A DNA stretch of 42,373 bases, taken from a virus. The notes under the pieces were generated by a model, which was not told the origin of the DNA, ran no database searches, and was given only the letters and a program-made list of their open reading frames with translations. The position numbers were made by a program, and so were the translations under genes. Positions 2,281 through 33,131 of this stretch are shown here, in pieces. The DNA lies in the IMG/VR virus record IMGVR_UViG_3300047546_001448, positions 1 to 42,373 of that record; one strand, given 5' to 3'. Position 1 is the stretch's first letter. Each line of letters opens with the position of its first letter.

Positions 2281-2635
2281 TTTATTAATTTTTATTTTTG
2301 TCGTAATAATTATTACTGGTGCAGTAATTGAAAACATAAGATTAAAAAATAAAAATATTGAGTTAATGTTTTTATTAGCACAGTCAACATTAGATATAAC
2401 TGCTATTAAAGATAAAATAAGTAGCCAAGATAGTGATACAGAAAAAGATCATTTTATTACATTCTTAAATGATACAAGAGAAATGGCATATAAATATATT
2501 GAGGATTTGCAAAATGAATTAATAATTTTTGCTAAAGTATTAGACAATGAATCTGAGTTACCAAATGATCTATCAGTTCCACGAATAAAAAAGGCTTTTG
2601 AGCAAATAGAAAAAATGAGGCCAAGTGAAGACTGA
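2273..2635 (+). CDS. Single-pass membrane protein with coiled-coil tail
   Basis: 120 residues. A strongly hydrophobic N-terminal segment (residues 2-19, Leu/Ile/Val/Phe rich) should anchor it in the membrane; the rest is charged and helical. No family is recognised. It overlaps both neighbours, which couples it to the tryptophan halogenase gene. Topology is predicted by eye only. Confidence 0.6.
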   Translation: MLDLLIFIFVVIIITGAVIENIRLKNKNIELMFLLAQSTLDITAIKDKISSQDSDTEKDHFITFLNDTREMAYKYIEDLQNELIIFAKVLDNESELPNDLSVPRIKKAFEQIEKMRPSED

Positions 2636-4163
2636 TAAGATAGTTATTGTTGGCGGTGGATCAGCAGGTTGGATGACAGCATCTGCTTTAATAAAAGCAT
2701 ATCCAGAAAAAGATATATGTTTAGTTGAAAGCAAAGACATTCCAATAATTGGTGTTGGCGAAAGTACTACTTTTGAAATAAATGGATTTTTTAATTTTTT
2801 GGGTATTGACTATGCAAGTATTATGAAATATACTAATGCTTCATATAAAGTTGCAATTGGTTTTACTAATTTTAAAACAAAAGATTCCCCTACCTTTTAT
2901 TATCCTTTTGGACATCCTAATTTAGACAAAGAACTAACATGTTTTGGATTAGATGATTGGCATTATAAAAAAGCATTTTATCCAGATACTGAGGATCAAG
3001 ATTATGTTAGATACTTTTTCCCACAAGCAAAAAGTATGGAAACAAATAAAATAGTAGTTGATACTATTGAAGACATTCATCCATATCAGCCACACAGAGA
3101 TTTAGCATTGCAAATGGATGCTACTAAGTTAGGTAACTGGCTTGCAGAGTTTTATGCCATACCACGTGGTGTAAAAAGAATTTGGGGTACAGTAGATAAA
3201 ATTAACCCTAGCGATATCGGCATACACTCTTTAGTCTTGGACGATGGAACAGAAATAGTTGCTGACTTATTCGTTGATTGCTCTGGTTTTAATAGTATTT
3301 TATTAGGTAATTTTATGAATGAAAAATTTATCTCAACCGCAGAATTTTTGCCTAATAACAGGGCATGGACAGCCCATATTCCATATACTGATAAAGAAAA
3401 AGAGTTACAAACTTTTACTAATTGTACTGCTATAAACAATGGATGGGTATGGAATATTCCTCTTTGGAATAGAATTGGATCTGGATATGTGTACTGCAAT
3501 GATTTTATAAGTGATGAAGATGCTCTTGAAGAATATAAAAATTATTTAGATTCTAATAAGATGGTTGTTCATAACCCAGAAAGATCAAAATCTTTAACGT
3601 TTAAAAATATAAAAATTCATAATGGATATTATGATAGATTTTGGGTTGGAAATGTAGTTGCCGTAGGATTGGCAGCAGGATTTTTAGAGCCACTTGAAAG
3701 TACTGGTTTATTGCTTACTCATCAAAATTGCTTTACTCTTATAGATGCGCTTCAAAGAAATACAGTAAGCCAATATGATATAGATAATTTTAATTATAAA
3801 ACTAAAACAAGAATAGAAAAAATGTTTGACTTTGTAGGCATGCATTATGCTTTATCTCAAAGAGATGACACAAAATATTGGAAGAGCATTACGTCAAAAC
3901 AATATCCTAAAAATTATTTCAGATCAGACATGCAATGGGCCAATAATAATGTTGATACGATAAAGGCTGGATTTGGTTTAAGACCTTTTTATAATACATA
4001 CATAAGTCTTTTAGAAAGCATGTCAGATCAAAATTATAATATTAAAAGTAAAATGGAAATATATTTTCAGAAAAGAGCAAAAGCAAAAGAAATATGGGAT
4101 AATATTATAGACAATTCTAAAACACATTTTCAGATTTTAAGAGAAAATTTTTATGAAGAATAA
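2625..4163 (+). CDS. Flavin-dependent tryptophan halogenase family protein
   Basis: 512 residues with a GTG start inside the previous gene (11-bp overlap). The FAD-binding Rossmann motif GGGSAGWMTA is at residues 10-19. The WxWxIP signature of flavin-dependent halogenases is present as W274-W276-I278-P279. K75 in the motif ASYKVAIGF and E358 in EPLESTG correspond to the catalytic Lys and Glu of PrnA-type enzymes. Such enzymes use FADH2, O2 and halide to chlorinate or brominate an indole; the substrate can be free Trp or a larger molecule. All key residues are intact, so activity is plausible. A flavin reductase would come from the host. A cyanophage member of this class has been described, but phage copies are rare. 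Confidence 0.9.
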   Translation: MKTDKIVIVGGGSAGWMTASALIKAYPEKDICLVESKDIPIIGVGESTTFEINGFFNFLGIDYASIMKYTNASYKVAIGFTNFKTKDSPTFYYPFGHPNLDKELTCFGLDDWHYKKAFYPDTEDQDYVRYFFPQAKSMETNKIVVDTIEDIHPYQPHRDLALQMDATKLGNWLAEFYAIPRGVKRIWGTVDKINPSDIGIHSLVLDDGTEIVADLFVDCSGFNSILLGNFMNEKFISTAEFLPNNRAWTAHIPYTDKEKELQTFTNCTAINNGWVWNIPLWNRIGSGYVYCNDFISDEDALEEYKNYLDSNKMVVHNPERSKSLTFKNIKIHNGYYDRFWVGNVVAVGLAAGFLEPLESTGLLLTHQNCFTLIDALQRNTVSQYDIDNFNYKTKTRIEKMFDFVGMHYALSQRDDTKYWKSITSKQYPKNYFRSDMQWANNNVDTIKAGFGLRPFYNTYISLLESMSDQNYNIKSKMEIYFQKRAKAKEIWDNIIDNSKTHFQILRENFYEE

Positions 4164-6867: not shown

Positions 6868-7623
6868 TCACATTATAGCATATTTTTTCTTGTTAGACAT
6901 AACCTTTTCATAAAGATAGTAATCAGCATGATTTAATTCATTTATTCTATTTACCCAAGAGTCTGGTATAGAAAAATCTAAGGGGTTAGGCCTAGGCGTG
7001 TTATGGCCAGACCATTCGTAGTCTGAAATTGTCTTTGTTAATTTATATTTTTTTTGAAAAAGGGTATTTAGAAAATCGATCAGATTATCTCTATTTTCAA
7101 CAGTCTCTACTATATTAGAGTCCAATGCTTTGTCTATCTCTGAAGAATCAATATTATATTCTACTAAACACCAATTTGATTTCATCTTATCAATAGGTTC
7201 TTCAATTTTATTCCAAAGTTCTACGTTAACATAGCCTAATAAAAATTTTGACTGTATATTAGATGTACCTTTATAATACGATTCATCATATAAAAATTTT
7301 TCCATGTAGGCTTGTGGAGTACCATAGTCAGATCCAACAATCTTTGAATCTACAACAGTAAGACCTTGCCTGTACATAAGCCAAAACCAACTAAGCCACT
7401 GCTCTTTTGGATCTCTTACCAATGAAAAAGAAATTACACCGTCTATATGTTTTTGTGGTAACTGTCCTATGTGTCCAGCAATATATTGTTTATTCTTAAA
7501 ATTATTTACGTCTATTTTATCTGTAGGCTCTATAATATATTTAGAAACTTCTTTATTTTTTTTAATATAATGGTTTATAACTCCGCCAGAGGTTCTTGGA
7601 ATATGATTATGAAAAATTGTCAT
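6868..7623 (-). CDS. Sulfotransferase family protein
   Basis: 251 residues. The PAPS 5'-loop is at the very N-terminus (HNHIPRTSG, 5-13, with Arg in place of the usual Lys) and SLVRDPKEQWLSWF (66-79) is the 3'-phosphate motif. A C-terminal Asp-rich segment with DYYLYEKV resembles the end of the 4796-5680 enzyme. The Lys-to-Arg change at a PAPS-contacting position may alter activity. It starts 6 nt after TACAAT, within a divergent promoter shared with the oxygenase at 7656. Confidence 0.8.
   Translation of the reverse strand: MTIFHNHIPRTSGGVINHYIKKNKEVSKYIIEPTDKIDVNNFKNKQYIAGHIGQLPQKHIDGVISFSLVRDPKEQWLSWFWLMYRQGLTVVDSKIVGSDYGTPQAYMEKFLYDESYYKGTSNIQSKFLLGYVNVELWNKIEEPIDKMKSNWCLVEYNIDSSEIDKALDSNIVETVENRDNLIDFLNTLFQKKYKLTKTISDYEWSGHNTPRPNPLDFSIPDSWVNRINELNHADYYLYEKVMSNKKKYAIM
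6872..6877 (-). promoter_or_regulatory. -10 element inside the end of the sulfotransferase gene
   Basis: TATAAT on the minus strand, preceded by TGC (extended -10), 6 nt before the ATG at 6865. It overlaps the last sense codons (GCT ATA ATG) of the upstream gene. Leaderless architecture. Confidence 0.55.
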
Positions 7624-7629
7624 TAAATA

Positions 7630-7649
7630 ATTGTACCATATGATACAAT
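7630..7649. promoter_or_regulatory. Overlapping divergent leaderless promoters in a 20-bp palindrome
   Basis: A near-perfect palindrome places TACAAT on the minus strand at 7635-7630 and TACAAT on the plus strand at 7644-7649, 8 bp apart. Each lies 6 nt before its own ATG (7623 minus, 7656 plus). The two polymerase footprints overlap, so only one gene should fire at a time from a template. The 9950-9969 element has the same geometry. Confidence 0.65.
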
Positions 7650-7655
7650 AAAGTT

Positions 7656-8222
7656 ATGTATGAAATATTGGCTCCAGGAATTGTATTATTTAATAATATT
7701 TTTGATAAAGATTATGTAAGTTTTATAGAAGATAATATTTCTGAATATTTTAAATTAAAAATTAATAATCCTAATGGAAATATTGTTAGAAAATCTTATT
7801 CAATACAACTAAGCGATATCGAAAAAACTAATGAGTATGCAAATTTTTTATACAAAGATTTTCAAAATAAATTACAAGATTGCATTAATTTATATAAATC
7901 AATATACGATATTTCAAATATGGTTTTTGAATACGATAACGAAAACAATTCAATTGTCACTTTATTAAAGTATGAAATAGATAATTCAGTTATATTTCAT
8001 AGTGATACTTTAGGAATGGACAACAGGGTTGGTGCTGCTTTGGCGTATTTAAATGATGACTACGACGGCGGGGAGTTAGAATTTAAACATTTTAATATAA
8101 AAATAACTCCACCCAAAAATAGTTTAATAATTTTTCCGTCTAATTGGCCTTACACACATAGGTCAAATCCAATAGTGTCTGGAAATAAATATGCCTTAAG
8201 ATGTTTTTTGGTTAGTAAATAA
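7656..8222 (+). CDS. 2OG-Fe(II) oxygenase
   Basis: 188 residues. H115-x-D117 (FHSD), GGELEF at 138-143 and the distal His in YTHRSNP (H168) give the facial triad. The 2-oxoglutarate-binding Arg is replaced by K178 in SGNKYALR, although a nearby Arg (R182) could substitute. This is a single-gene plus-strand unit between minus-strand genes with its own leaderless promoter, typical of a moron. Substrate unknown. Confidence 0.87.
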   Translation: MYEILAPGIVLFNNIFDKDYVSFIEDNISEYFKLKINNPNGNIVRKSYSIQLSDIEKTNEYANFLYKDFQNKLQDCINLYKSIYDISNMVFEYDNENNSIVTLLKYEIDNSVIFHSDTLGMDNRVGAALAYLNDDYDGGELEFKHFNIKITPPKNSLIIFPSNWPYTHRSNPIVSGNKYALRCFLVSK

Positions 8223-8296: not shown

Positions 8297-9187
8297 TTAA
8301 AAAACATTCCATTTCTCCTTTGCTGTTTTTAAAAAACAATTAGCATAATACATATTAATTAAAGTACCAGCGTGTCCATCTCTTTTCTTTAGGTCATGAT
8401 CAGTCTTTTTCCAGCCCAATTCATACTGTGTTGCTACATAATTTACTTGATCATCTATGTTCATATCTACATATGAATCATCTAACATTTTTAATGTTTT
8501 TAAATTTTCTAAATCATTAAAATACCAAGTAGACCACAAAACATTGATATCATTATATTTACAATAATCTAAAAAAAATCTCCATCCTACAACAAAATTC
8601 ATTAACGATTCAAAATATTCTTTATTAGACAAAATGCCTAAATCCTTTTTTTGAGGGGGGCCATCAGAAGATTTAGGGTATCTTTGCATATAACAGTAAT
8701 CGTTTTTATTAACAGTATCAAATTCAAATCTTCTAGATATATTAGGTAACAAAATAAAAAGATAGTCTGGTTTACTATACTCACGTATATAAACTCTTAT
8801 ATTATCCATTATCATTTGCCAGCCCCATCCAGATCTTGCTAAACTATATAATGTTTTATCTTCTAGGTTGCAATTTTTTAAAAAAATAGTTGGCCAAACA
8901 GTTTCTAAATTACCACCTATGCCCTCAGTCTGAGAACAACCAGAAAACAAAACATGTGGCTTTGACGGAGTCTTTGTAAATTCGTTTGACCTAAAAAAGT
9001 TTGAATTATACTTATACAAAACAGTTTTATCATCAACTACATGAGTTCCTCTTTCAGATTTTGTTATGGTTTCTTCAAAAACCTTACTTCCTCTATGCCA
9101 GGATAAGTCAAATTGATCTAAAATTGTATTGCTCATTCCCTGATTGCAAATTTCTTTTTTTAAAATATAATCTTTATCTAAACTCAC
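8297..9187 (-). CDS. SGNH/GDSL hydrolase-like protein
   Basis: 296 residues. VLFSGCSQTEG gives a block I with nucleophile candidate S85, SGWGW a block II Gly, LLPNISR a block III Asn, and D270-x-H272 near the C-terminus a block V Asp/His pair. SGNH enzymes are esterases, lipases or O-acetyl transferases. Paralogues lie at 16688-17554, 17551-18438 and 34856-35764. Overlaps the methyltransferase gene by 4 bp. Between 8223 and 8296 I see no gene. Confidence 0.65.
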   Translation of the reverse strand: MSLDKDYILKKEICNQGMSNTILDQFDLSWHRGSKVFEETITKSERGTHVVDDKTVLYKYNSNFFRSNEFTKTPSKPHVLFSGCSQTEGIGGNLETVWPTIFLKNCNLEDKTLYSLARSGWGWQMIMDNIRVYIREYSKPDYLFILLPNISRRFEFDTVNKNDYCYMQRYPKSSDGPPQKKDLGILSNKEYFESLMNFVVGWRFFLDYCKYNDINVLWSTWYFNDLENLKTLKMLDDSYVDMNIDDQVNYVATQYELGWKKTDHDLKKRDGHAGTLINMYYANCFLKTAKEKWNVF

Positions 9188-9942
9188 CAGATTCTCCTTA
9201 AGTATATATCATAAAAGCCTAATTTATGTAATGCTAATGCATCTACAGACCAGTTTTTATTATAATATAAAAACTCATTTACTGTTTGAAAAGTTCCATA
9301 CTGAACCCCATCAATTATTCCGTCATAAATTAAATAATCATTTAGACCTATTATTCCATCGACAGGAATTAATTTAGAAGAGTCTGACAAAACTTTTCTT
9401 GTTGCTGCTCGTCCATTATGAATATCTATATAGATATAATCATATTCTTTTCCTACAAACGTTGGAAGAATATCTTCTGCGTCACCCTTATATGTAGTTA
9501 CATTGCCATACTTACTAAATTTATTTTTAATAAAATCTTCTGATTCCTCAGCAGAAAAATCATACGTATGCTTTATTGGCTTACACTGACATTCTCCAAA
9601 CCTTCTCCAAGACCAGCACTTCATGTCTTGATCAAATCTACAAACTAAGTCAATAACTGATGGGTTAGCACTCTCACAAACTAATTCAGAATAATATCCC
9701 CATGCAACACCAACTTCCATATACCTTAAGCCCTTTTTTAAACTTTTTATATATTCTTCTCTAGATTTAAATATTCGTGCATTGTCCAACTGTGCTTGAC
9801 TTAATTCTCTAGGATCCTCTACTTCATCCCTATTTAATTTTTTAATTTCATCTGGACCGAAAGACTCTACTATTTTTTTTGACATGCCGCTATTTTGCTC
9901 AACCTGCTCAGTTATACGTTTTTGTTCATCTGTTAATGGCAT
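9184..9942 (-). CDS. Class I SAM-dependent methyltransferase
   Basis: 252 residues. YMEVGVAWGYYSELV (74-88) is the SAM-binding motif I, and YDYIYIDIHNG is the strand-4 acidic motif of the Methyltransf_24-like group. The N-terminal 60 residues are helical and unmatched. A Cys cluster (CWSWRRFGECQC) sits after motif I. Acceptor unknown. Co-transcribed with the SGNH gene. Starts 7 nt after TATAAT. Confidence 0.75.
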   Translation of the reverse strand: MPLTDEQKRITEQVEQNSGMSKKIVESFGPDEIKKLNRDEVEDPRELSQAQLDNARIFKSREEYIKSLKKGLRYMEVGVAWGYYSELVCESANPSVIDLVCRFDQDMKCWSWRRFGECQCKPIKHTYDFSAEESEDFIKNKFSKYGNVTTYKGDAEDILPTFVGKEYDYIYIDIHNGRAATRKVLSDSSKLIPVDGIIGLNDYLIYDGIIDGVQYGTFQTVNEFLYYNKNWSVDALALHKLGFYDIYLRRIW

Positions 9943-9949
9943 AATAATG

Positions 9950-9969
9950 ATTATACACTATGATATAAT
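9950..9969. promoter_or_regulatory. Overlapping divergent leaderless promoters
   Basis: TATAAT on both strands (9955-9950 minus, 9964-9969 plus), separated by 8 bp and forming an imperfect 20-bp palindrome like that at 7630-7649. The minus ATG (9942) is 7 nt and the plus ATG (9978) 8 nt from its hexamer. Confidence 0.62.
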
Positions 9970-9977
9970 AAAGTATT

Positions 9978-10640
9978 ATGAAAGAACCAATAAAAGGGCC
10001 AGCCTACGATAAGTATATAGAATTAAAGATGTCTCAAGAGCCTATATCAAATCAGGACTTTGTTCCATTTATAGTAGATAATATTTTTTCTAAAGAAGAT
10101 ATAGAACATTTATATGAAATTATAAACAATACTCCAGATGAAAAAACACAAATTCAAAAATGGGGCGGGATGAAGGCTTGGCATATAGATTTAGGTCCAA
10201 GGATTAAAGATAAAATAAACGAAGCAGTAAAAAGATCTTTGGGTGATAATGTCAGATTGGTTGATGATCATTCATTTGCTAGATATAGTATGGAGTATGG
10301 ATGGATGACTAAATTATTTCCACATACAGATATGAGAGACAAACAAAGAATAACGTTTGACATACAAATTAGAGCAGATGAAGAGTGGGGAGTTGTAGTA
10401 GAAGATATAGAATACTTTTTAGAAGATAATCAGGCACTAGTCTTTGCTGGAACACAGCAACCTCATTGGAGAAGAAAGAAAGAATTAAAGTCAGGTAGCC
10501 ATCAGGACATGATATTCTGTCATTTAGAGTATGTAGAAGATGTGCCTTATGATGATCATCAAGATCAAATACTTCATGAAAGAAATAGATTCTTTTCTGA
10601 ATATTATGATATGCATCCAGATCCAAGTACTTTTTACTAA
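9978..10640 (+). CDS. 2OG-Fe(II) oxygenase, HWR subgroup
   Basis: 220 residues. The iron ligands are H116-x-D118 (FPHTD) and H163 (QPHWR). The long strand FDIQIRADEEWGVVVED, followed by NQALVFAGTQQPHW, defines a subgroup shared with 32117-32803 and 33118-33708, in which a Trp-Arg follows the distal His. Activity likely; substrate unknown. It leads a plus-strand unit that continues into the RsmI-like gene. Confidence 0.8.
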   Translation: MKEPIKGPAYDKYIELKMSQEPISNQDFVPFIVDNIFSKEDIEHLYEIINNTPDEKTQIQKWGGMKAWHIDLGPRIKDKINEAVKRSLGDNVRLVDDHSFARYSMEYGWMTKLFPHTDMRDKQRITFDIQIRADEEWGVVVEDIEYFLEDNQALVFAGTQQPHWRRKKELKSGSHQDMIFCHLEYVEDVPYDDHQDQILHERNRFFSEYYDMHPDPSTFY

Positions 10641-10641
10641 T

Positions 10642-10821
10642 ATGAAAAATGTAGAAGACTCTATAAAAGAAGTATTATTTAATATAGGAAAAGAAATTAA
10701 AGTACACAAATTAATAGATGGAAATCTTATATTAGATATCGATTACGATAAATATGCTGATGAGTTAATGCAGTTATTTAAAAAGTATTTAAAAGAAAGT
10801 AATTTGCGAGATGTATGGTAA
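10642..10821 (+). CDS. Hypothetical protein
   Basis: 59 residues starting one base after the oxygenase stop. An upstream in-frame start at 10540 would lie inside that gene and is rejected. Charged and helical, with an Asp-rich centre (ILDIDYDKYADELMQLFKK). It overlaps the RsmI-like start by 11 bp. No family recognised. Confidence 0.6.
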   Translation: MKNVEDSIKEVLFNIGKEIKVHKLIDGNLILDIDYDKYADELMQLFKKYLKESNLRDVW

Positions 10822-11575
10822 GTTATATCTAGTTGGATCCCCAATAGGGAATAGTTTAGATGTTTCCAAAAGACTGCTGGACGCTTTTTCTGACGCTAAA
10901 TATATTTGTGTTGAAGATATAGACAGGTTTAAGGAATATTGTAATTTAAATAATTTTTATTATAGTGCAGAATTAATAGACATATGCTTTTCTTTAAACA
11001 ATAACAGAGAAATGAATATTAAAGAAAAAATTATTTTATTGCTTAAAGGTGGAGAAGATGTTTATATAATATCAGATGAAGGAATGCCTGGTTTAGCAGA
11101 TCCTGGTGAAATATTAGTAAAAGAAGCAATAAAAAATAATATAGAAATAGTAACAACTCCAGGCCCATCCACTGTAGTAGCAGCAGCATCTGTATGCAAT
11201 GTTCTGAACAACTTTATATTTGAAGGATTTATGTCTAATACAAACTCTGACAGACATGAAAAATTTAAATTTTTACAAACATCACCTGCACCAATGATCT
11301 TTCTTTTACATAACCCAAACACTAGACCTATAGACAGTGACGATAAAATTCATATGATACATAACTGTTTTGATGCTGATGTTTTTATTAAAGAATGTAT
11401 TTCTTTTTTTGGAGAAGACCGACGTGCTGTACTTTGCATAGATTTAACAACTTCAAAACAAAAAGTAATAAGGGGATTGCTAAAAGATATAGAAGAGTAT
11501 TTATTAAATAATAAAGTTTTGGGTAATTTATGCTTAGTCGTTGATGGAATTACAAATCAAAAAATAACTATTTAG
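10811..11575 (+). CDS. RsmI-like 16S rRNA 2'-O-methyltransferase family protein, copy 1
   Basis: 254 residues of the tetrapyrrole (corrin/porphyrin) methylase fold. GKLYLVGSPIGN (3-14), SDEGMPGLADPG (88-99) and TTPGPS (115-120) correspond to RsmI motifs (LVATPIGN, ISDAGTPxxxDPG, xPGPS). RsmI methylates C1402 of 16S rRNA in the decoding centre. It is slightly shorter than bacterial RsmI, lacking part of the C-terminal domain. A paralogue lies at 13634-14389. rRNA targeting is inferred from family only. Confidence 0.75.
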   Translation: MYGKLYLVGSPIGNSLDVSKRLLDAFSDAKYICVEDIDRFKEYCNLNNFYYSAELIDICFSLNNNREMNIKEKIILLLKGGEDVYIISDEGMPGLADPGEILVKEAIKNNIEIVTTPGPSTVVAAASVCNVLNNFIFEGFMSNTNSDRHEKFKFLQTSPAPMIFLLHNPNTRPIDSDDKIHMIHNCFDADVFIKECISFFGEDRRAVLCIDLTTSKQKVIRGLLKDIEEYLLNNKVLGNLCLVVDGITNQKITI

Positions 11576-11717
11576 TATTTTTACCATATTCGCCATACTT
11601 ACCAAGAACTGCCTTTACTGTTCCGTCTTTACGAAGGCGAACAATATTTCCATCTTTAATTTGTATAGGATTAAATCTATCATGTCTCTTATATGATCCT
11701 GAAGATTTCTTAGACAT
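11568..11717 (-). CDS. Small basic protein
   Basis: 49 residues, Lys/Arg/Gly rich (KKSSGSYKRHDR at the start, ending KYGEYGKNTK), with a short beta-like IVRLRKDGTVKAVLG centre. It may bind nucleic acid. Convergent with and overlapping the RsmI-like gene by 8 bp; lies 3 bp downstream of the next minus gene. Confidence 0.5.
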   Translation of the reverse strand: MSKKSSGSYKRHDRFNPIQIKDGNIVRLRKDGTVKAVLGKYGEYGKNTK

Positions 11718-11720
11718 AAA

Positions 11721-12464
11721 TCACCAAATTTCTGTTATTCTTTCTGTTTTAGAAATTTTTTTGCCAAATCCCTCGAATAAAACTTTTTCTGCTGGAACAC
11801 AATTAGGAACTGGTTTACCATTTTTACCAGGTTTCATGCCACGTTGAACATAGCCTTCCCAGCACGGTGCTTGTTTATTTAAATCTGGACAGCAATCTGA
11901 TTTCATTTCATTTGCTTGACATACAGGACAAAGATCACAACAAACATTCATGTCCTTGCATGTAGGACATCCACAGCCATCGTACTGACATGGTTCTGAA
12001 TCAGATTGACCTATTGTTGAAACATCTTCTTTAATAACTTCGTTTTTATCCATACCAATATTTTCTTCTAATGATGGCATAACCATAACCTCTGATGCTT
12101 TTGCACCTACAAAATATTCAGTCTCTTCAAGACCGCCTTCTTCCATTTCAAAAAGTTGTATTAATATTGCTGGCTCAGTAGGACTTGCTTCAATAGCATA
12201 TTCTGATCCTGGAACTCCTAACATTCCTTCATTCATTACATGAACAACACGACCTACAAACATTTCTTCTTCATGTGGAGCCATGACCATATCGCCCTCT
12301 TTAACCATTGCTTTGCCTATATTGCCCTCAGAACGGTTTATAGCATAGATTTGTGCTGCTGCCTTACTACGAGTTTTGTGGCATCCCACAACCTCTCCTG
12401 TGTCTTTCATGGCAGGGTATCCAGAACATCCTCCAGATCCTTTAGCACCTATATGATATGGCAT
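11721..12464 (-). CDS. Cys-rich protein with capsid-associated N-terminal motif
   Basis: 247 residues. The start (HIGAKGSGGCSGYPAMKD, then GCHKTRSKAAAQIYAIN) is a module seen at the ends of actinophage capsid, portal and prohead-protease proteins. The middle is acidic. Residues 158-195 carry a Cys-rich cluster (CQYDGCGCPTC, CCDLCPVC, CCPD) able to bind metal, and the C-terminus PCWEGYVQRGMKPGKNGK repeats a motif common in phage structural proteins. Possibly a virion accessory protein. A leaderless start follows TATAAT by 6 nt. Confidence 0.6.
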   Translation of the reverse strand: MPYHIGAKGSGGCSGYPAMKDTGEVVGCHKTRSKAAAQIYAINRSEGNIGKAMVKEGDMVMAPHEEEMFVGRVVHVMNEGMLGVPGSEYAIEASPTEPAILIQLFEMEEGGLEETEYFVGAKASEVMVMPSLEENIGMDKNEVIKEDVSTIGQSDSEPCQYDGCGCPTCKDMNVCCDLCPVCQANEMKSDCCPDLNKQAPCWEGYVQRGMKPGKNGKPVPNCVPAEKVLFEGFGKKISKTERITEIW

Positions 12465-12470
12465 AACAAC

Positions 12471-12476
12471 ATTATA
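12471..12476 (-). promoter_or_regulatory. Extended -10, leaderless promoter
   Basis: TGC-TATAAT on the minus strand, 6 nt before the ATG at 12464. No convincing -35. Confidence 0.6.
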
Positions 12477-12487
12477 GCATGATAAAA

Positions 12488-12511
12488 GAGCAGTTTTAAC
12501 ACATGCTCAGG
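12488..12511 (-). promoter_or_regulatory. CCTGAGCA...TGCTC 3'-UTR element, copy A
   Basis: On the minus strand, 24 bp downstream of the Hsp20 stop: CCTGAGCATG, a short AU-rich loop ending AAAC, then TGCTC. It forms a 5-bp stem and matches three other copies at 23396, 24572 and 26154. Followed by TTTTATC, so it may help terminate transcription. Confidence 0.5.
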
Positions 12512-12534
12512 TGCCAGTATGACGCTGTTGTTAT

Positions 12535-12954
12535 TTATTTGATTTTGATTGTTTTTGGTTTCTTTTCTTCGGGGATGTTACGTTCCACAAAGATGCTAAG
12601 AATACCGTCTGCCATTTCAGCACGACCTACCTCCATATACTCTCCAAGAGCAAAGGTGCGTGTGAACTTCCTAGTTGCGATACCCTTATGTAGTACTTCG
12701 TTAGAAGCCTCTTCGGTTTTCTCACCCTTGATAATTAAACTTCCATTATCCACAGAAACCTCTACCTCGTCCTTACTAAAACCAGCAAGGGCTAAAGATA
12801 GTCTGTAAGTGTCTTCATCAAGTTTTACCACATCATATGGTGGATAAGATTGACGAGTTGCCTCACGATGGATATTTGAAAGACGGTCCAACTCTCTGTT
12901 GAAACCAATAAAAAATGGATCTTTAAACAGATCCAATGCAAATGAACTTACCAT
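12535..12954 (-). CDS. hsp20: Small heat shock protein, Hsp20/alpha-crystallin family
   Basis: 139 residues, normal length for the family. The alpha-crystallin domain spans about residues 38-125: YPPYDVVK, YRLSLALAGFSKDEVEVSV, LIIKGEK, then GRAEMADGILSIFVERN with the conserved A-x-x-x-G-I-L motif. A holdase chaperone that keeps unfolded proteins soluble; phage copies are known from cyanophages. Strong RBS (AAGGAGGAAAATT). Monocistronic. Confidence 0.92.
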   Translation of the reverse strand: MVSSFALDLFKDPFFIGFNRELDRLSNIHREATRQSYPPYDVVKLDEDTYRLSLALAGFSKDEVEVSVDNGSLIIKGEKTEEASNEVLHKGIATRKFTRTFALGEYMEVGRAEMADGILSIFVERNIPEEKKPKTIKIK

Positions 12955-12970
12955 AATTTTCCTCCTTATT

Positions 12971-12988
12971 AAGCGAGTTCGTTATACC
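12971..12988 (-). promoter_or_regulatory. Putative Hsp20 promoter
   Basis: The minus strand carries GGGTATAAC about 20 bp upstream of the ribosome site, without a good TTGACA. TATAAC could serve sigma70, while GGGTAT resembles the -10 of actinobacterial SigB/SigF-type stress sigma factors. Weak evidence. Confidence 0.3.
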
Positions 12989-13017
12989 CCCCTTTGGGCA
13001 GGTACATTACTATTATA

Positions 13018-13599
13018 TCATAAACTTCCTATAAAATCTATATTAATAACACATCTAAAATCAGATTTTACTGGACTAGAAGATGCATGATAGGTTAAGC
13101 CATCAAAAACAATTGCTTTACCAGATTCTGGAGATACATTTTTCATAATACTTAAACTATCAATTTTGTCGCCGTTGTATTTTTCATTAAAGAAAATTGT
13201 ATCACCATCTGAATCATTAACATAATATAAAAAAACTAAATGATTTTTGTCTGCGTCAACATGAGGATAATGCATTCCACTATTGCCATTTTTTAATATC
13301 ATGTTTGCTTTAATTCTAACAATGTCATTTACAATAATATTATTTTTACTGGAAAATTTATTTAATATAGATATACATGTATCTGCAAATGGTGACTGTT
13401 TTTGTTTATTAAACATAGCCATATGAACAAACTGTGGACTATCTATTATATTTTTTCCGTCTAGTATTGCATAACTATCTGTTTTTATGTTTGTAGATTT
13501 ATTAAATATCCATGGAAATTTCCATTTTGGTTCTTCATACATAACATTTTGTAAATGTTTAATTTCTTCTATTGATAAAAAATTGTCGTCTATTATCAT
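13018..13599 (-). CDS. 2OG-Fe(II) oxygenase
   Basis: 193 residues. H113-x-D115 (YPHVD), distal H171 (TYHASSSP) and R182 complete the active site. GDTIFF replaces the GGELEF of other copies, marking a separate subgroup close to eukaryotic-type P4H domains. Leaderless start 6 nt after TACAAT, divergent from the second RsmI-like gene. Confidence 0.85.
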   Translation of the reverse strand: MIIDDNFLSIEEIKHLQNVMYEEPKWKFPWIFNKSTNIKTDSYAILDGKNIIDSPQFVHMAMFNKQKQSPFADTCISILNKFSSKNNIIVNDIVRIKANMILKNGNSGMHYPHVDADKNHLVFLYYVNDSDGDTIFFNEKYNGDKIDSLSIMKNVSPESGKAIVFDGLTYHASSSPVKSDFRCVINIDFIGSL

Positions 13600-13605
13600 T
13601 AAATC

Positions 13606-13627
13606 ATTGTATCACATAGTGTATACT
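13606..13627. promoter_or_regulatory. Divergent leaderless promoters
   Basis: TACAAT on minus (13611-13606) and TATACT on plus (13622-13627), separated by 10 bp in a partly palindromic sequence. Each is 6 nt from its ATG (13599 minus, 13634 plus). Confidence 0.6.
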
Positions 13628-13633
13628 TAATAT

Positions 13634-14389
13634 ATGAAGTATGGAAAACTATTTTTAGTTGGACTTCCTGTTGGTAATTGGGAGGACATGTCTGTTAGAT
13701 CATATAAGTATATTAAAAATGCAAAAAATATAGTTATTGAAAGAGAAGAGGCATTTGAAAAAATTTGGCCTCAATTAGGAATGGAAAAGCCAAGCATAAA
13801 CACAATATCAATAGAGTATGATTCTGACGGAGGTGAGCCAGGTGAGGCATACGAATTGCACAATATGGAAAAAATATTGCAACTATTAAAAAATGGAGAA
13901 GATGTATATTTAATTTCTGATGAAGGAATGCCAGGTGTTGCTGATCCTGGAGCAAGAATAGTCAAAAGATGTATATTAGAAGGAATAGAAGTTACCTCTA
14001 CTCCTGGACCATCAGTAGTTATGGCTGCGGTAGCAGTTACTGGAACTATGCATAATTTTATATTTGAATCTTTCTTACCATTTATTAAAGAAGAAAGATT
14101 GTTATTTTTAGAAGAAAGAAAAGATTATAAATACCCCATGGTCTTGATGTTAAGAAATGCAAAACGTGGTCAAGAGTTTCATGATGAAATTCCAAACTTT
14201 TTGGAAGAAGCAATTTCTATATTAGGAAAAACAAGAAAGGCTTCACTTTGTTACAACTTAACAATGGATAACGAAAAGGTTGTACATGATACATTAGATG
14301 GACTAAGGTTATATTTTAACAATGGGCCAAGGAATATATTAGATCAAATATGCATCGTAATAGATGGAAAATATAACACTATGAATTAG
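13634..14389 (+). CDS. RsmI-like 16S rRNA 2'-O-methyltransferase family protein, copy 2
   Basis: 251 residues. GKLFLVGLPVGN (4-15), SDEGMPGVADPG (95-106) and STPGPS (122-127) repeat the motifs of the 10811-11575 protein, but the two diverge elsewhere, so the duplication is old or the copies were acquired separately. Predicted to methylate a ribose, possibly of 16S rRNA or another RNA. Convergent with the CDGSH gene (4-bp overlap). Confidence 0.75.
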   Translation: MKYGKLFLVGLPVGNWEDMSVRSYKYIKNAKNIVIEREEAFEKIWPQLGMEKPSINTISIEYDSDGGEPGEAYELHNMEKILQLLKNGEDVYLISDEGMPGVADPGARIVKRCILEGIEVTSTPGPSVVMAAVAVTGTMHNFIFESFLPFIKEERLLFLEERKDYKYPMVLMLRNAKRGQEFHDEIPNFLEEAISILGKTRKASLCYNLTMDNEKVVHDTLDGLRLYFNNGPRNILDQICIVIDGKYNTMN

Positions 14390-23431: not shown

Positions 23432-24439
23432 TTACGCAATTTCTAAAACATCTCTTACAACATTTAGTAAGCGGTGTTTCTCAACTGTAATAGCAGGGTC
23501 AAAACCACTTGAACCCATTAGGATTGATTCAGTAAGACCACGCTTACCTCCACGATACCAATCAATGCGCTCAGTAAGTGCGTTCCATGCGCCCCATGCT
23601 GTGCCAGCAATCATTCCGTTGAACTCACCTGTGTAGATGTCGTTGATTGTATCAACTTTCTTAGTCCACTTAGTAAGTGCCTGTTTAGCGTCCTTGTCAG
23701 GCTTAGGATAGGCAGCAAGAACAATATCGTTGAATTGTTGCGCTGTGATTTCTTTCTCAATCATGGCTTGTGCCATTAGAGAGAATTCGTCCATGTAAGC
23801 ATTAGCAACAGCAAGAGCCTCACGAGCCTGTTGAACTTTACCTTCAGCAGATTGCGTGTGACGAATCTTGAATGATTGCTTGACACCATTCTTCTTGCGT
23901 GTGCGACCAAGAGCAACAGCAAGAGTATTAGCGCACACAACACGAACAGGTGTTACGCTTGCTTGAATAGCAACAGAGCCATCGTGTGATGTATTGACGA
24001 GAAGATAAGTTTTGACTTTATCTGCTACGCCATTAGGGTCTAGAACAGTCTCACGCTCAAGAGCAAGAGAACCGAATACAACACGACCACCACGCAGAGA
24101 GCCAGCAGTTTCCCAACGACCTCCACCATCAAGAATTGCGTCACCAAAAGTGAACAGTTCTTCATTTTGTAGTGGGACATAGCGTTCACCAACAACGCCT
24201 AAAACATCAACTTGATTTGCGGTGAATGGATTATCACGCACAACATATTGATAAGATTTATCAGATGAAAGAGTAGATGGGATTTCTACATCTTCAAGAC
24301 GAACATTCCAACCATCAAGATTGGCGAGTTCCAACATTTTTTCAGTAGATACTTCTTCCTGAAAAACTGTTCCTAAACCATGCCAAGCAGGTTCACGGAA
24401 CGAAGCGAAAGAATTAGCAGATTCTAATTCATGAGCCAT
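23432..24439 (-). CDS. DUF932 phage/plasmid-related protein (TIGR03299-like)
   Basis: 335 residues. MAHELE at the start, then REPAWHGLGT, YVPLQNEELF, GGRWETAGSLRGGRVVF and SVTPVRVVCANTL are the conserved blocks of the DUF932/TIGR03299 family, common in actinophages and plasmids; role not established. By eye its G+C is clearly higher than the AT-rich morons, suggesting a different ancestry. RBS AAAGGAAATAAA. Confidence 0.88.
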   Translation of the reverse strand: MAHELESANSFASFREPAWHGLGTVFQEEVSTEKMLELANLDGWNVRLEDVEIPSTLSSDKSYQYVVRDNPFTANQVDVLGVVGERYVPLQNEELFTFGDAILDGGGRWETAGSLRGGRVVFGSLALERETVLDPNGVADKVKTYLLVNTSHDGSVAIQASVTPVRVVCANTLAVALGRTRKKNGVKQSFKIRHTQSAEGKVQQAREALAVANAYMDEFSLMAQAMIEKEITAQQFNDIVLAAYPKPDKDAKQALTKWTKKVDTINDIYTGEFNGMIAGTAWGAWNALTERIDWYRGGKRGLTESILMGSSGFDPAITVEKHRLLNVVRDVLEIA

Positions 24440-32199: not shown

Positions 32200-32803
32200 C
32201 GTGATCATCACCATCTAAATAATGTTCTTCAGATAAAGGATTTTCATCTTCTCCATGATGTGTTTGACATAACAAGATATCATAATAATCTTCATCACCA
32301 AAATATTTATCTGGTCTCCAATGTGCTTGGTTTGTACCAGAGAACCAAACTGCTTGATTCTTTTCCATTTGGAACTTCTCATCTTCAACATAGAAATCCC
32401 AATCAAGGGTTTTGTCTAGTTCAATTGTAAACATATATGCTGTATGTGTTTCTGATCTATCTTGGTGCGGGTACAAAGATGGAATCTCACCACTTAAAGG
32501 TGTATATCTAGCCCACAACACACCTATATGATCTACAGGACCACCAGTCTTTTCTTCAAACTTTTGTCTAATTTTATCTTCTACTTGTTTAGGCAATCCT
32601 GGTAGTGGTCCATTACGACGTTCACTAAAAAATATAACTAAAAATCCATTGTTTGTGTTTTTACGAAAATGTAGCCATGGATCGTTTGCTTCGGCAATAC
32701 CAATATCGATTGTCTTCTTTATTGTGTCATAAATCATTCCATACTCTTCATCTGTAAAAAAATATTTTTCAGTATGTGGTTTTAAAGGATCGATATTTGC
32801 CAT
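32117..32803 (-). CDS. 2OG-Fe(II) oxygenase, HWR subgroup
   Basis: 228 residues from the ATG at 32803, 6 nt after TATAAT; a longer frame upstream is rejected. LYPHQD gives the HxD pair; FTIELDKTLDWDFYVED and NQAVWFSGTNQAHWRPD give the distal His-Trp-Arg. Related to 9978-10640 and 33118-33708. Confidence 0.82.
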   Translation of the reverse strand: MANIDPLKPHTEKYFFTDEEYGMIYDTIKKTIDIGIAEANDPWLHFRKNTNNGFLVIFFSERRNGPLPGLPKQVEDKIRQKFEEKTGGPVDHIGVLWARYTPLSGEIPSLYPHQDRSETHTAYMFTIELDKTLDWDFYVEDEKFQMEKNQAVWFSGTNQAHWRPDKYFGDEDYYDILLCQTHHGEDENPLSEEHYLDGDDHATEVAQKYAHLLPETLLKATRLQGPCQ

Positions 32804-32809
32804 ATAAAG

Positions 32810-32835
32810 ATTATAACATATGATTATGGTATACT
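32810..32835. promoter_or_regulatory. Divergent promoters
   Basis: Minus TATAAT (32815-32810) is 6 nt from ATG 32803. Plus TATACT (32830-32835) is followed by an AGGAGG ribosome site before ATG 32859. One leaderless and one leadered gene. Confidence 0.58.
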
Positions 32836-32858
32836 TTAAAAGATGATAGGAGGCCATT

Positions 32859-33131
32859 ATGGCACTAGAAAAAATGAGTTCTGTAGAAACTGACTGGTAT
32901 ACAACTCAAGAGGGAACTGCTCAGGCAAAAGACTTTATTTTTAAAGATTTTTGTGACTATCTAATTGTAATCAAGACATTTGCAGATCCATCTGATAATA
33001 CACAATTAAAGAAAACTGAAATTGTTCATATCAACTCTAATGATGGGCGGGTAGTTAATAAATCTTATGATGAATTAGATCCACCACTAAAGGATGCATT
33101 GACAAGGGCTAATTTCCCTATTGCAAAGTAA
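32859..33131 (+). CDS. Hypothetical protein
   Basis: 90 residues with an AGGAGG ribosome site. KDFIFKDFCDYLIVIKTFADP then KKTEIVHINSNDGRVVNKSY, a beta-rich small fold. Convergent with the next oxygenase (14-bp overlap). No family recognised; base composition is more like the tail genes. Confidence 0.65.
   Translation: MALEKMSSVETDWYTTQEGTAQAKDFIFKDFCDYLIVIKTFADPSDNTQLKKTEIVHINSNDGRVVNKSYDELDPPLKDALTRANFPIAK

What the first reader, a model, noticed from the sequence alone, without database searches (positions are those of the whole stretch)
7630..7649. Face-to-face overlapping promoters built as a 20-bp palindrome
At 7630-7649 and 9950-9969 two -10 hexamers on opposite strands are separated by exactly 8 bp; at 13606-13627 by 10 bp. 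Each drives a leaderless gene of the modification set. The polymerases cannot occupy both, so these look like built-in either/or switches. A palindrome also suits a dimeric regulator.
Basis: partly seen in the sequence, partly recalled or inferred. Interest (0 to 1): 0.6.

Follow-up and report, generated by a model that had tools for sequence, protein, structure and literature searches.

The report
Back-to-back leaderless phage promoter pairs
In an uncultured freshwater phage, neighbouring genes that point away from each other share about 32 bases holding two tightly packed promoters; the 'palindrome' is simply those two promoters touching, it gives no sign of a switch, and related phages have flipped DNA segments exactly at these spots.

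Summary
Relatives conserve them. Corrections: the promoters are back-to-back, not face-to-face, and only site 1 is strongly palindromic (18/20; site 2 14/20, site 3 10/22).

The palindrome is explained by two extended -10 promoters (TRTGnTATAAT-N6-ATG, no -35) packed so that their TG motifs meet; it fails at the free 'n' base. The gap varies widely in related pairs, which argues against a fixed dimeric operator. Both polymerases surely cannot sit at once, but a switch is not shown: published symmetric promoters barely compete at basal activity, and the pairs are functionally related enzymes that look co-expressed.

The unexpected result lies outside the claim. In relatives G008, G009 and G016 the ~3.65-kb segment between sites 2 and 3 is inverted with breakpoints inside these promoters, re-pairing the genes (C|D, E|F to C|E, F|D). 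The predicted hybrid junctions are seen; no serine or tyrosine recombinase was found. The promoter pairs behave like neutral hinges for module shuffling. New variant of a known kind (divergent/bidirectional promoters); moderate interest.

The parts
7630..7649 (.). Site 1: divergent extended -10 pair, ATTGTA-CCATATGA-TACAAT, gap 8; TGG and TGA precede the two hexamers
6868..7623 (-). Gene A, sulfotransferase-like (PHROG 3347, E 9e-5; PRTSGG motif at the N-terminus), leaderless, hexamer 6 bp from ATG
7656..8222 (+). Gene B, 2OG-Fe(II) oxygenase (PF13640, E 1.5e-10), leaderless, hexamer 6 bp from ATG
9950..9969 (.). Site 2: divergent pair ATTATA-CACTATGA-TATAAT, gap 8; an inversion breakpoint in relatives G008, G009 and G016
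9184..9942 (-). Gene C, SAM methyltransferase-like (PF13578 E 9.5e-5, below cut-off; tRNA 5-hydroxyuridine methyltransferase 8k1f E 1e-4 by profile)
9978..10640 (+). Gene D, probable 2OG oxygenase by inference (conserved H116-x-D118 ... H163/H182; PHROG 2954 weak)
13606..13627 (.). Site 3: divergent pair ATTGTA-TCACATAGTG-TATACT, gap 10; the other inversion breakpoint; shares an 11-bp inverted repeat with site 2 (TATACACTATG / CATAGTGTATA), 13 bp in G005
13018..13599 (-). Gene E, probable 2OG oxygenase (PHROG 274 E 1.6e-40, named 'DNA endonuclease V' there; invariant H113-x-D115 ... H171 ... R182), leaderless
13634..14389 (+). Gene F, RsmI-like tetrapyrrole-methylase-family methyltransferase (PF00590 E 3e-24; 5hw4 RsmI E 3e-13), leaderless
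9944..13636 (.). Segment (D, RsmI-like G, H, Hsp20 K, E) inverted in relatives G008/G009/G016 between sites 2 and 3
32810..32835 (.).

Best explanation
Each site is a pair of independent, host sigma-70/SigA-type extended -10 promoters (TRTGnTATAAT, no -35) for two divergent, leaderless genes. They are packed nearly as close as two such elements can be: at 8 bp the two hexamers share only the inner nCATATGn, which is two TRTGn motifs overlapping by two bases. The apparent palindrome is therefore a by-product of packing and is not transcribed. Polymerase binding in one direction excludes the other for that moment (inferred from footprint size), but the likely effect is balanced constitutive co-expression of two related enzymes at low cost in DNA, not a switch. 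Because both halves are near-identical promoters, a crossover inside them leaves every gene with a promoter, so segments can be inverted there without loss; this happened between sites 2 and 3 in the G008/G009/G016 lineage. Shown: sequence, spacing, motif statistics, conservation, inversion and junction sequences. Inferred: promoter activity, start sites, co-expression, and the route of the inversion.
For: Hexamer-to-ATG distance peaks at exactly 6 bp (101 vs about 24). 123 such promoters give TRTGnTATAAT with no -35; TGn in 73/123 against 5.6% background. Orthologues keep hexamers and TG and lose flanks. 40 unique divergent leaderless pairs in about 125 family loci against 1-3 at displaced spacings. 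In 75 IMG/VR-wide real divergent pairs TGn occurs in 76/142 halves against 29/246 in matches without genes, Fisher p about 1e-18. Gap-8 cores: n bases not complementary (2/11), centre TA shared. Inversion breakpoints 9944 and 13615-13636 lie in sites 2 and 3; F|D junction ATTATACACTATGgTATAAT (G008) and C|E junction ATTATACACcATGctgTGGTAaAAT (G016/L031) fit crossover products of site 2 and site 3. Hosts are probably Actinobacteria: phrog_1221 homologues are mostly in actinophages, and leaderless genes with TANNNT about 12 bp upstream exceed 20% of actinobacterial genes (PMC3160421).
Against: No transcript data; start sites are inferred from spacing. Site 2 spacings (7 and 8 bp) allow 1-2 nt leaders. 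Two half-sites have TG one base closer (GTG) than the classical TGn. Gap 8 recurs in about 7 of 20 independent family pairs (rough p 0.002 against a uniform 8-17 gap), so some preference for 8 within this family is not excluded.
Confidence: 0.85

Rival explanations
1. Either/or switch: steric exclusion between the two promoters makes expression of the two genes mutually exclusive in a regulated way.
For: Start sites about 33 bp apart; both polymerases cannot be bound together. Competition appears at E. coli bidirectional promoters when one direction is activated.
Against: At basal activity five of five tested promoters did not compete (PMC12825309). No activator site or asymmetric strong partner is evident; both sides are similar extended -10s. 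Partners are functionally related enzymes and the 2OG oxygenase | methyltransferase pairing recurs, which suits joint expression. Partners are swapped by inversion, so a specific antagonistic pair is not maintained.
Confidence: 0.1
2. Operator: the palindrome is the binding site of a dimeric regulator that controls both genes.
For: Site 1 is 18/20 self-complementary.
Against: Sites 2 and 3 are 14/20 and 10/22. The gap varies 8-15 in related pairs, changing half-site phase. The only conserved inner positions are those of TRTGn. Seven 20-mers of at least 18/20 exist in the window by composition.
Confidence: 0.06
3. Programmed DNA inversion: sites 2 and 3 are recombination sites of an invertase and the 3.65-kb segment flips to re-pair genes (phase variation).
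For: Precise inversion with both breakpoints inside the sites; 11-13 bp inverted repeats.
Against: No serine (PF00239) or tyrosine (PF00589) recombinase in ten records, several of about 100-120 kb. All contigs of one lineage have one orientation, so a single old event suffices. The repeats are short.
Confidence: 0.04
4. Chance: AT-rich phage DNA gives hexamers near start codons.
For: GC 34%; single hexamers are common.
Against: Exact 6-bp peak, TGn enrichment, conservation in relatives, displaced-spacing control 1-3 against 40.
Confidence: 0.01

Closest known systems
Bacterial bidirectional promoters (Warman, Grainger and colleagues; PMC12825309, PMC10268837)
   Same: Sequence symmetry of -10 elements drives divergent transcription; polymerases exclude each other; often between divergent mRNAs.
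   Different: There the -10 element is shared and start sites lie 7-25 bp apart (18 most common). Here the hexamers are separate, the extended -10 TG motifs are what meet, and inferred start sites are 33-36 bp apart.
Closely juxtaposed divergent leaderless promoters of Mycobacterium tuberculosis (Cortes et al. 2013, PMC3898074)
   Same: Divergent pairs with leaderless transcripts, -10 without -35; one pair reported with both genes up-regulated together; TGn raises activity.
   Different: Only 7% of those -10 motifs have TGn, against about 59% here; no packing geometry or inversion described in the passages read.
TA-led (leaderless) genes of Actinobacteria (PMC3160421)
   Same: TANNNT about 12 bp (first T) upstream of the start codon.
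   Different: Single genes, not interlocked divergent pairs; here in phages.

Membership tests
Bacterial bidirectional promoter (Warman/Grainger definition) | Divergent start sites 7-25 bp apart | tested here: not met
   Inferred start sites 33-36 bp apart; definition in PMC10268837
Bacterial bidirectional promoter (Warman/Grainger definition) | Shared or overlapping -10 element | tested here: not met
   Hexamers separated by 8-10 bp; definition in PMC12825309
Bacterial bidirectional promoter (Warman/Grainger definition) | Divergent transcription measured | not testable with these tools
   No RNA data
Leaderless (TA-led) extended -10 promoter | -10 hexamer at fixed 6-bp distance to ATG, no Shine-Dalgarno | tested here: met
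   Peak at 6 bp; six genes at 6-8 bp
Leaderless (TA-led) extended -10 promoter | TGn upstream of hexamer, no -35 | tested here: met
   Logo of 123 promoters; at the three sites 4 of 6 halves TGn, 2 of 6 GTG
Dimeric-regulator operator | Conserved inverted repeat with fixed half-site spacing | tested here: not met
   Gap varies 8-15 in related pairs; symmetry lost at sites 2 and 3
Site-specific invertible element | Dedicated recombinase encoded | tested here: not met
   No PF00239 or PF00589 match in ten records; other recombinase families not tested
Site-specific invertible element | Both orientations in one population | tested here: inconclusive
   Only lineage-level difference seen in assembled contigs; reads not available

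The most novel reading that the evidence does not exclude
Interlocked divergent promoters act as hinges of genome shuffling: their near-identical halves are short inverted repeats at which segments invert, and their symmetry makes each product functional, so the phage can re-pair modules without losing expression. F is seen opposite E, D or K and C opposite D, E or K in different lineages, with breakpoints at these promoters.
Probability: 0.35. Interest if true: 0.6.

Novelty: new variant of a known kind. Interest (0 to 1): 0.42.

Why it matters
It shows how small a two-gene divergent control region can be (about 32 bp between start codons, no leader, no -35, no operator) and gives a sequence rule (TRTGn meeting TRTGn) that explains a palindrome without invoking a regulator. 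If the hinge reading holds, promoter symmetry would be a neutral breakpoint for module inversion in phages, which is directly testable on long-read viromes.

Tried and rejected
Palindrome as operator: rejected on variable gap and on symmetry failing at n bases. '8 bp is a universal optimum': a first sample of 34 divergent pairs had no gap below 8, but the enlarged set of 75 has seven below 8, three of them gap 6 with two TGn or near-TGn abutting; 8 is only favoured within this phage family. Hairpin in RNA: not applicable, the palindrome lies upstream of both inferred start sites. Dedicated invertase: PF00239 and PF00589 searches negative. PDB profile searches for genes A, D and E gave nothing at E 0.01. 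Literature searches for inversion breakpoints at divergent promoters gave no papers. The F protein search in annotated phages gave only remote hits below 32% identity, several in unannotated or probably contaminated records.

Full report
SETTING. The window is a 42,373-bp IMG/VR virus record, 34% GC. Its relatives are contigs of up to 123 kb. A conserved protein (23432-24439) has its homologues mainly in phages of Mycobacterium, Streptomyces, Microbacterium, Arthrobacter and Gordonia, so the host is probably an actinobacterium. 'Freshwater' is an inference from the likely source of the related contigs and was not checked in a record.

OBSERVATION. The three hexamer pairs are at the stated coordinates with gaps 8, 8 and 10. 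The genes are divergent: 7623(-)/7656(+), 9942(-)/9978(+), 13599(-)/13634(+), so the promoters are back-to-back, not face-to-face. The fixed-gap pattern occurs twice against 0.13 expected. Only site 1 is a good palindrome (18/20; 14/20 and 10/22 at the others). A fourth divergent promoter, gap 14, lies at 32810-32835 with a leaderless gene on one side and a Shine-Dalgarno-led gene on the other.

LEADERLESS EXTENDED -10 PROMOTERS. In ten related phage records the TATAAT-like hexamer peaks at exactly 6 bp before the start codon (101 against about 24). 123 unique examples give T-R-T-G-n-TATAAT-N6-ATG without a -35. TGn occurs in 73 of 123 against a 5.6% background. This matches the known leaderless class of Actinobacteria (PMC3160421; PMC3898074).

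WHY IT LOOKS PALINDROMIC. With a gap of 8 the inner bases are n-CA-TA-TG-n: two TRTGn motifs on opposite strands that share the central TA. Among 11 distinct gap-8 cores the outer n bases are complementary in only 2, whereas the centre is in 7. The symmetry stops where the promoter motif is free. Orthologous sites keep hexamers and TG while the flanks change.

GAP DISTRIBUTION. Across about 125 family loci there are 40 unique divergent leaderless pairs against 1-3 at displaced spacings; gaps are 8 (16), 13 (6), 10 (3), 14 (3), 11 (2), 15 (2) and others. After collapsing orthologues by eye about 7 of 20 independent pairs have gap 8. In a wider IMG/VR sample 75 real pairs have gaps from 3 to 30 with no single optimum; TGn is present in 76 of 142 halves against 29 of 246 in matches without genes. 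A recurrent pair, 2OG oxygenase opposite a C-like methyltransferase, has gaps 8, 11, 13, 14 and 15. A fixed dimeric operator does not fit.

EITHER/OR. Two polymerases cannot occupy start sites about 33 bp apart at once (established footprint size; not tested here). Tested E. coli bidirectional promoters with closer start sites showed no competition at basal activity; competition appeared only when one direction was activated (PMC12825309). The partners are related enzymes: sulfotransferase-like A, 2OG oxygenase B, methyltransferase-like C, probable 2OG oxygenases D and E, RsmI-like F. Co-expression is the simpler reading.

INVERSION AT THE PROMOTERS. In the window lineage (window, G001, G003, G005) the order is C(-)|site 2|D G H K E(-)|site 3|F(+). 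In G008 it is F(-)|D G H K E|C(+). DNA alignment puts the strand changes at 9944 and 13615-13636, inside the two promoters. G009 shows F|D with E deleted, so K lies opposite C. G016 (L031/L321) shows C|E followed by K. Sites 2 and 3 share an 11-bp inverted repeat in the window and 13 bp (ATTATACACTATG) in G005. Random 35-mer pairs of the region reach 11 or more in 3 of about 3,000, though promoters are not random sequence. A crossover there predicts F-ATTATACACTATG-(A)TATAAT-D and C-ATTATACACTATG-TGGTACAAT-E; G008 has ATTATACACTATGGTATAAT and G016 has ATTATACACCATGCTGTGGTAAAAT. In G013, L348 and L356 F is opposite K. No serine or tyrosine recombinase was found. Selection against inversions that separate a gene from its promoter would also leave breakpoints here, so a causal hinge is not shown.

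COMPARISON. By the published definition (start sites 7-25 bp apart, shared -10) these are not bidirectional promoters; they work like them. They are closest to the juxtaposed divergent leaderless promoters reported for M. tuberculosis. I call them a new variant of a known kind.

Noticed in passing
window 9944-13636; G008 47630-51355 (L044): 3.65-kb inversion between relatives with both breakpoints inside the divergent promoters; re-pairs genes C, D, E and F.
   Followed up: yes
window 32801-32859: Fourth divergent promoter, gap 14, leaderless 2OG-like gene on the minus strand and a Shine-Dalgarno-led gene on the plus strand.
   Followed up: partly
window 10811-11575 and 13634-14389: Two RsmI-like (PF00590) paralogues, 37% identical, in one phage; a third, more distant one in G003, G005 and G008.
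   Followed up: no
window 2625-4163: Flavin-dependent tryptophan-halogenase family protein (PF04820, E 2e-100) in a phage.
   Followed up: no
L010 9679, L012 13883, L069 6737, L335 15087, L346 7768, L354 5661: Recurrent divergent pair of a 2OG oxygenase and a C-like methyltransferase across distant phage contigs.
   Followed up: partly
L193-L311 (bacterial genomes): 72 divergent leaderless-type pairs also occur in bacterial genomes (Saccharibacteria, Gastranaerophilales and others), with a mode at gap 19 (10 of 72), some of them homologous.
   Followed up: no
window 13018-13599: PHROG 274 is labelled 'DNA endonuclease V', but the invariant HxD...H...R of gene E suggests a 2OG oxygenase; the PHROG label is doubtful.
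   Followed up: no
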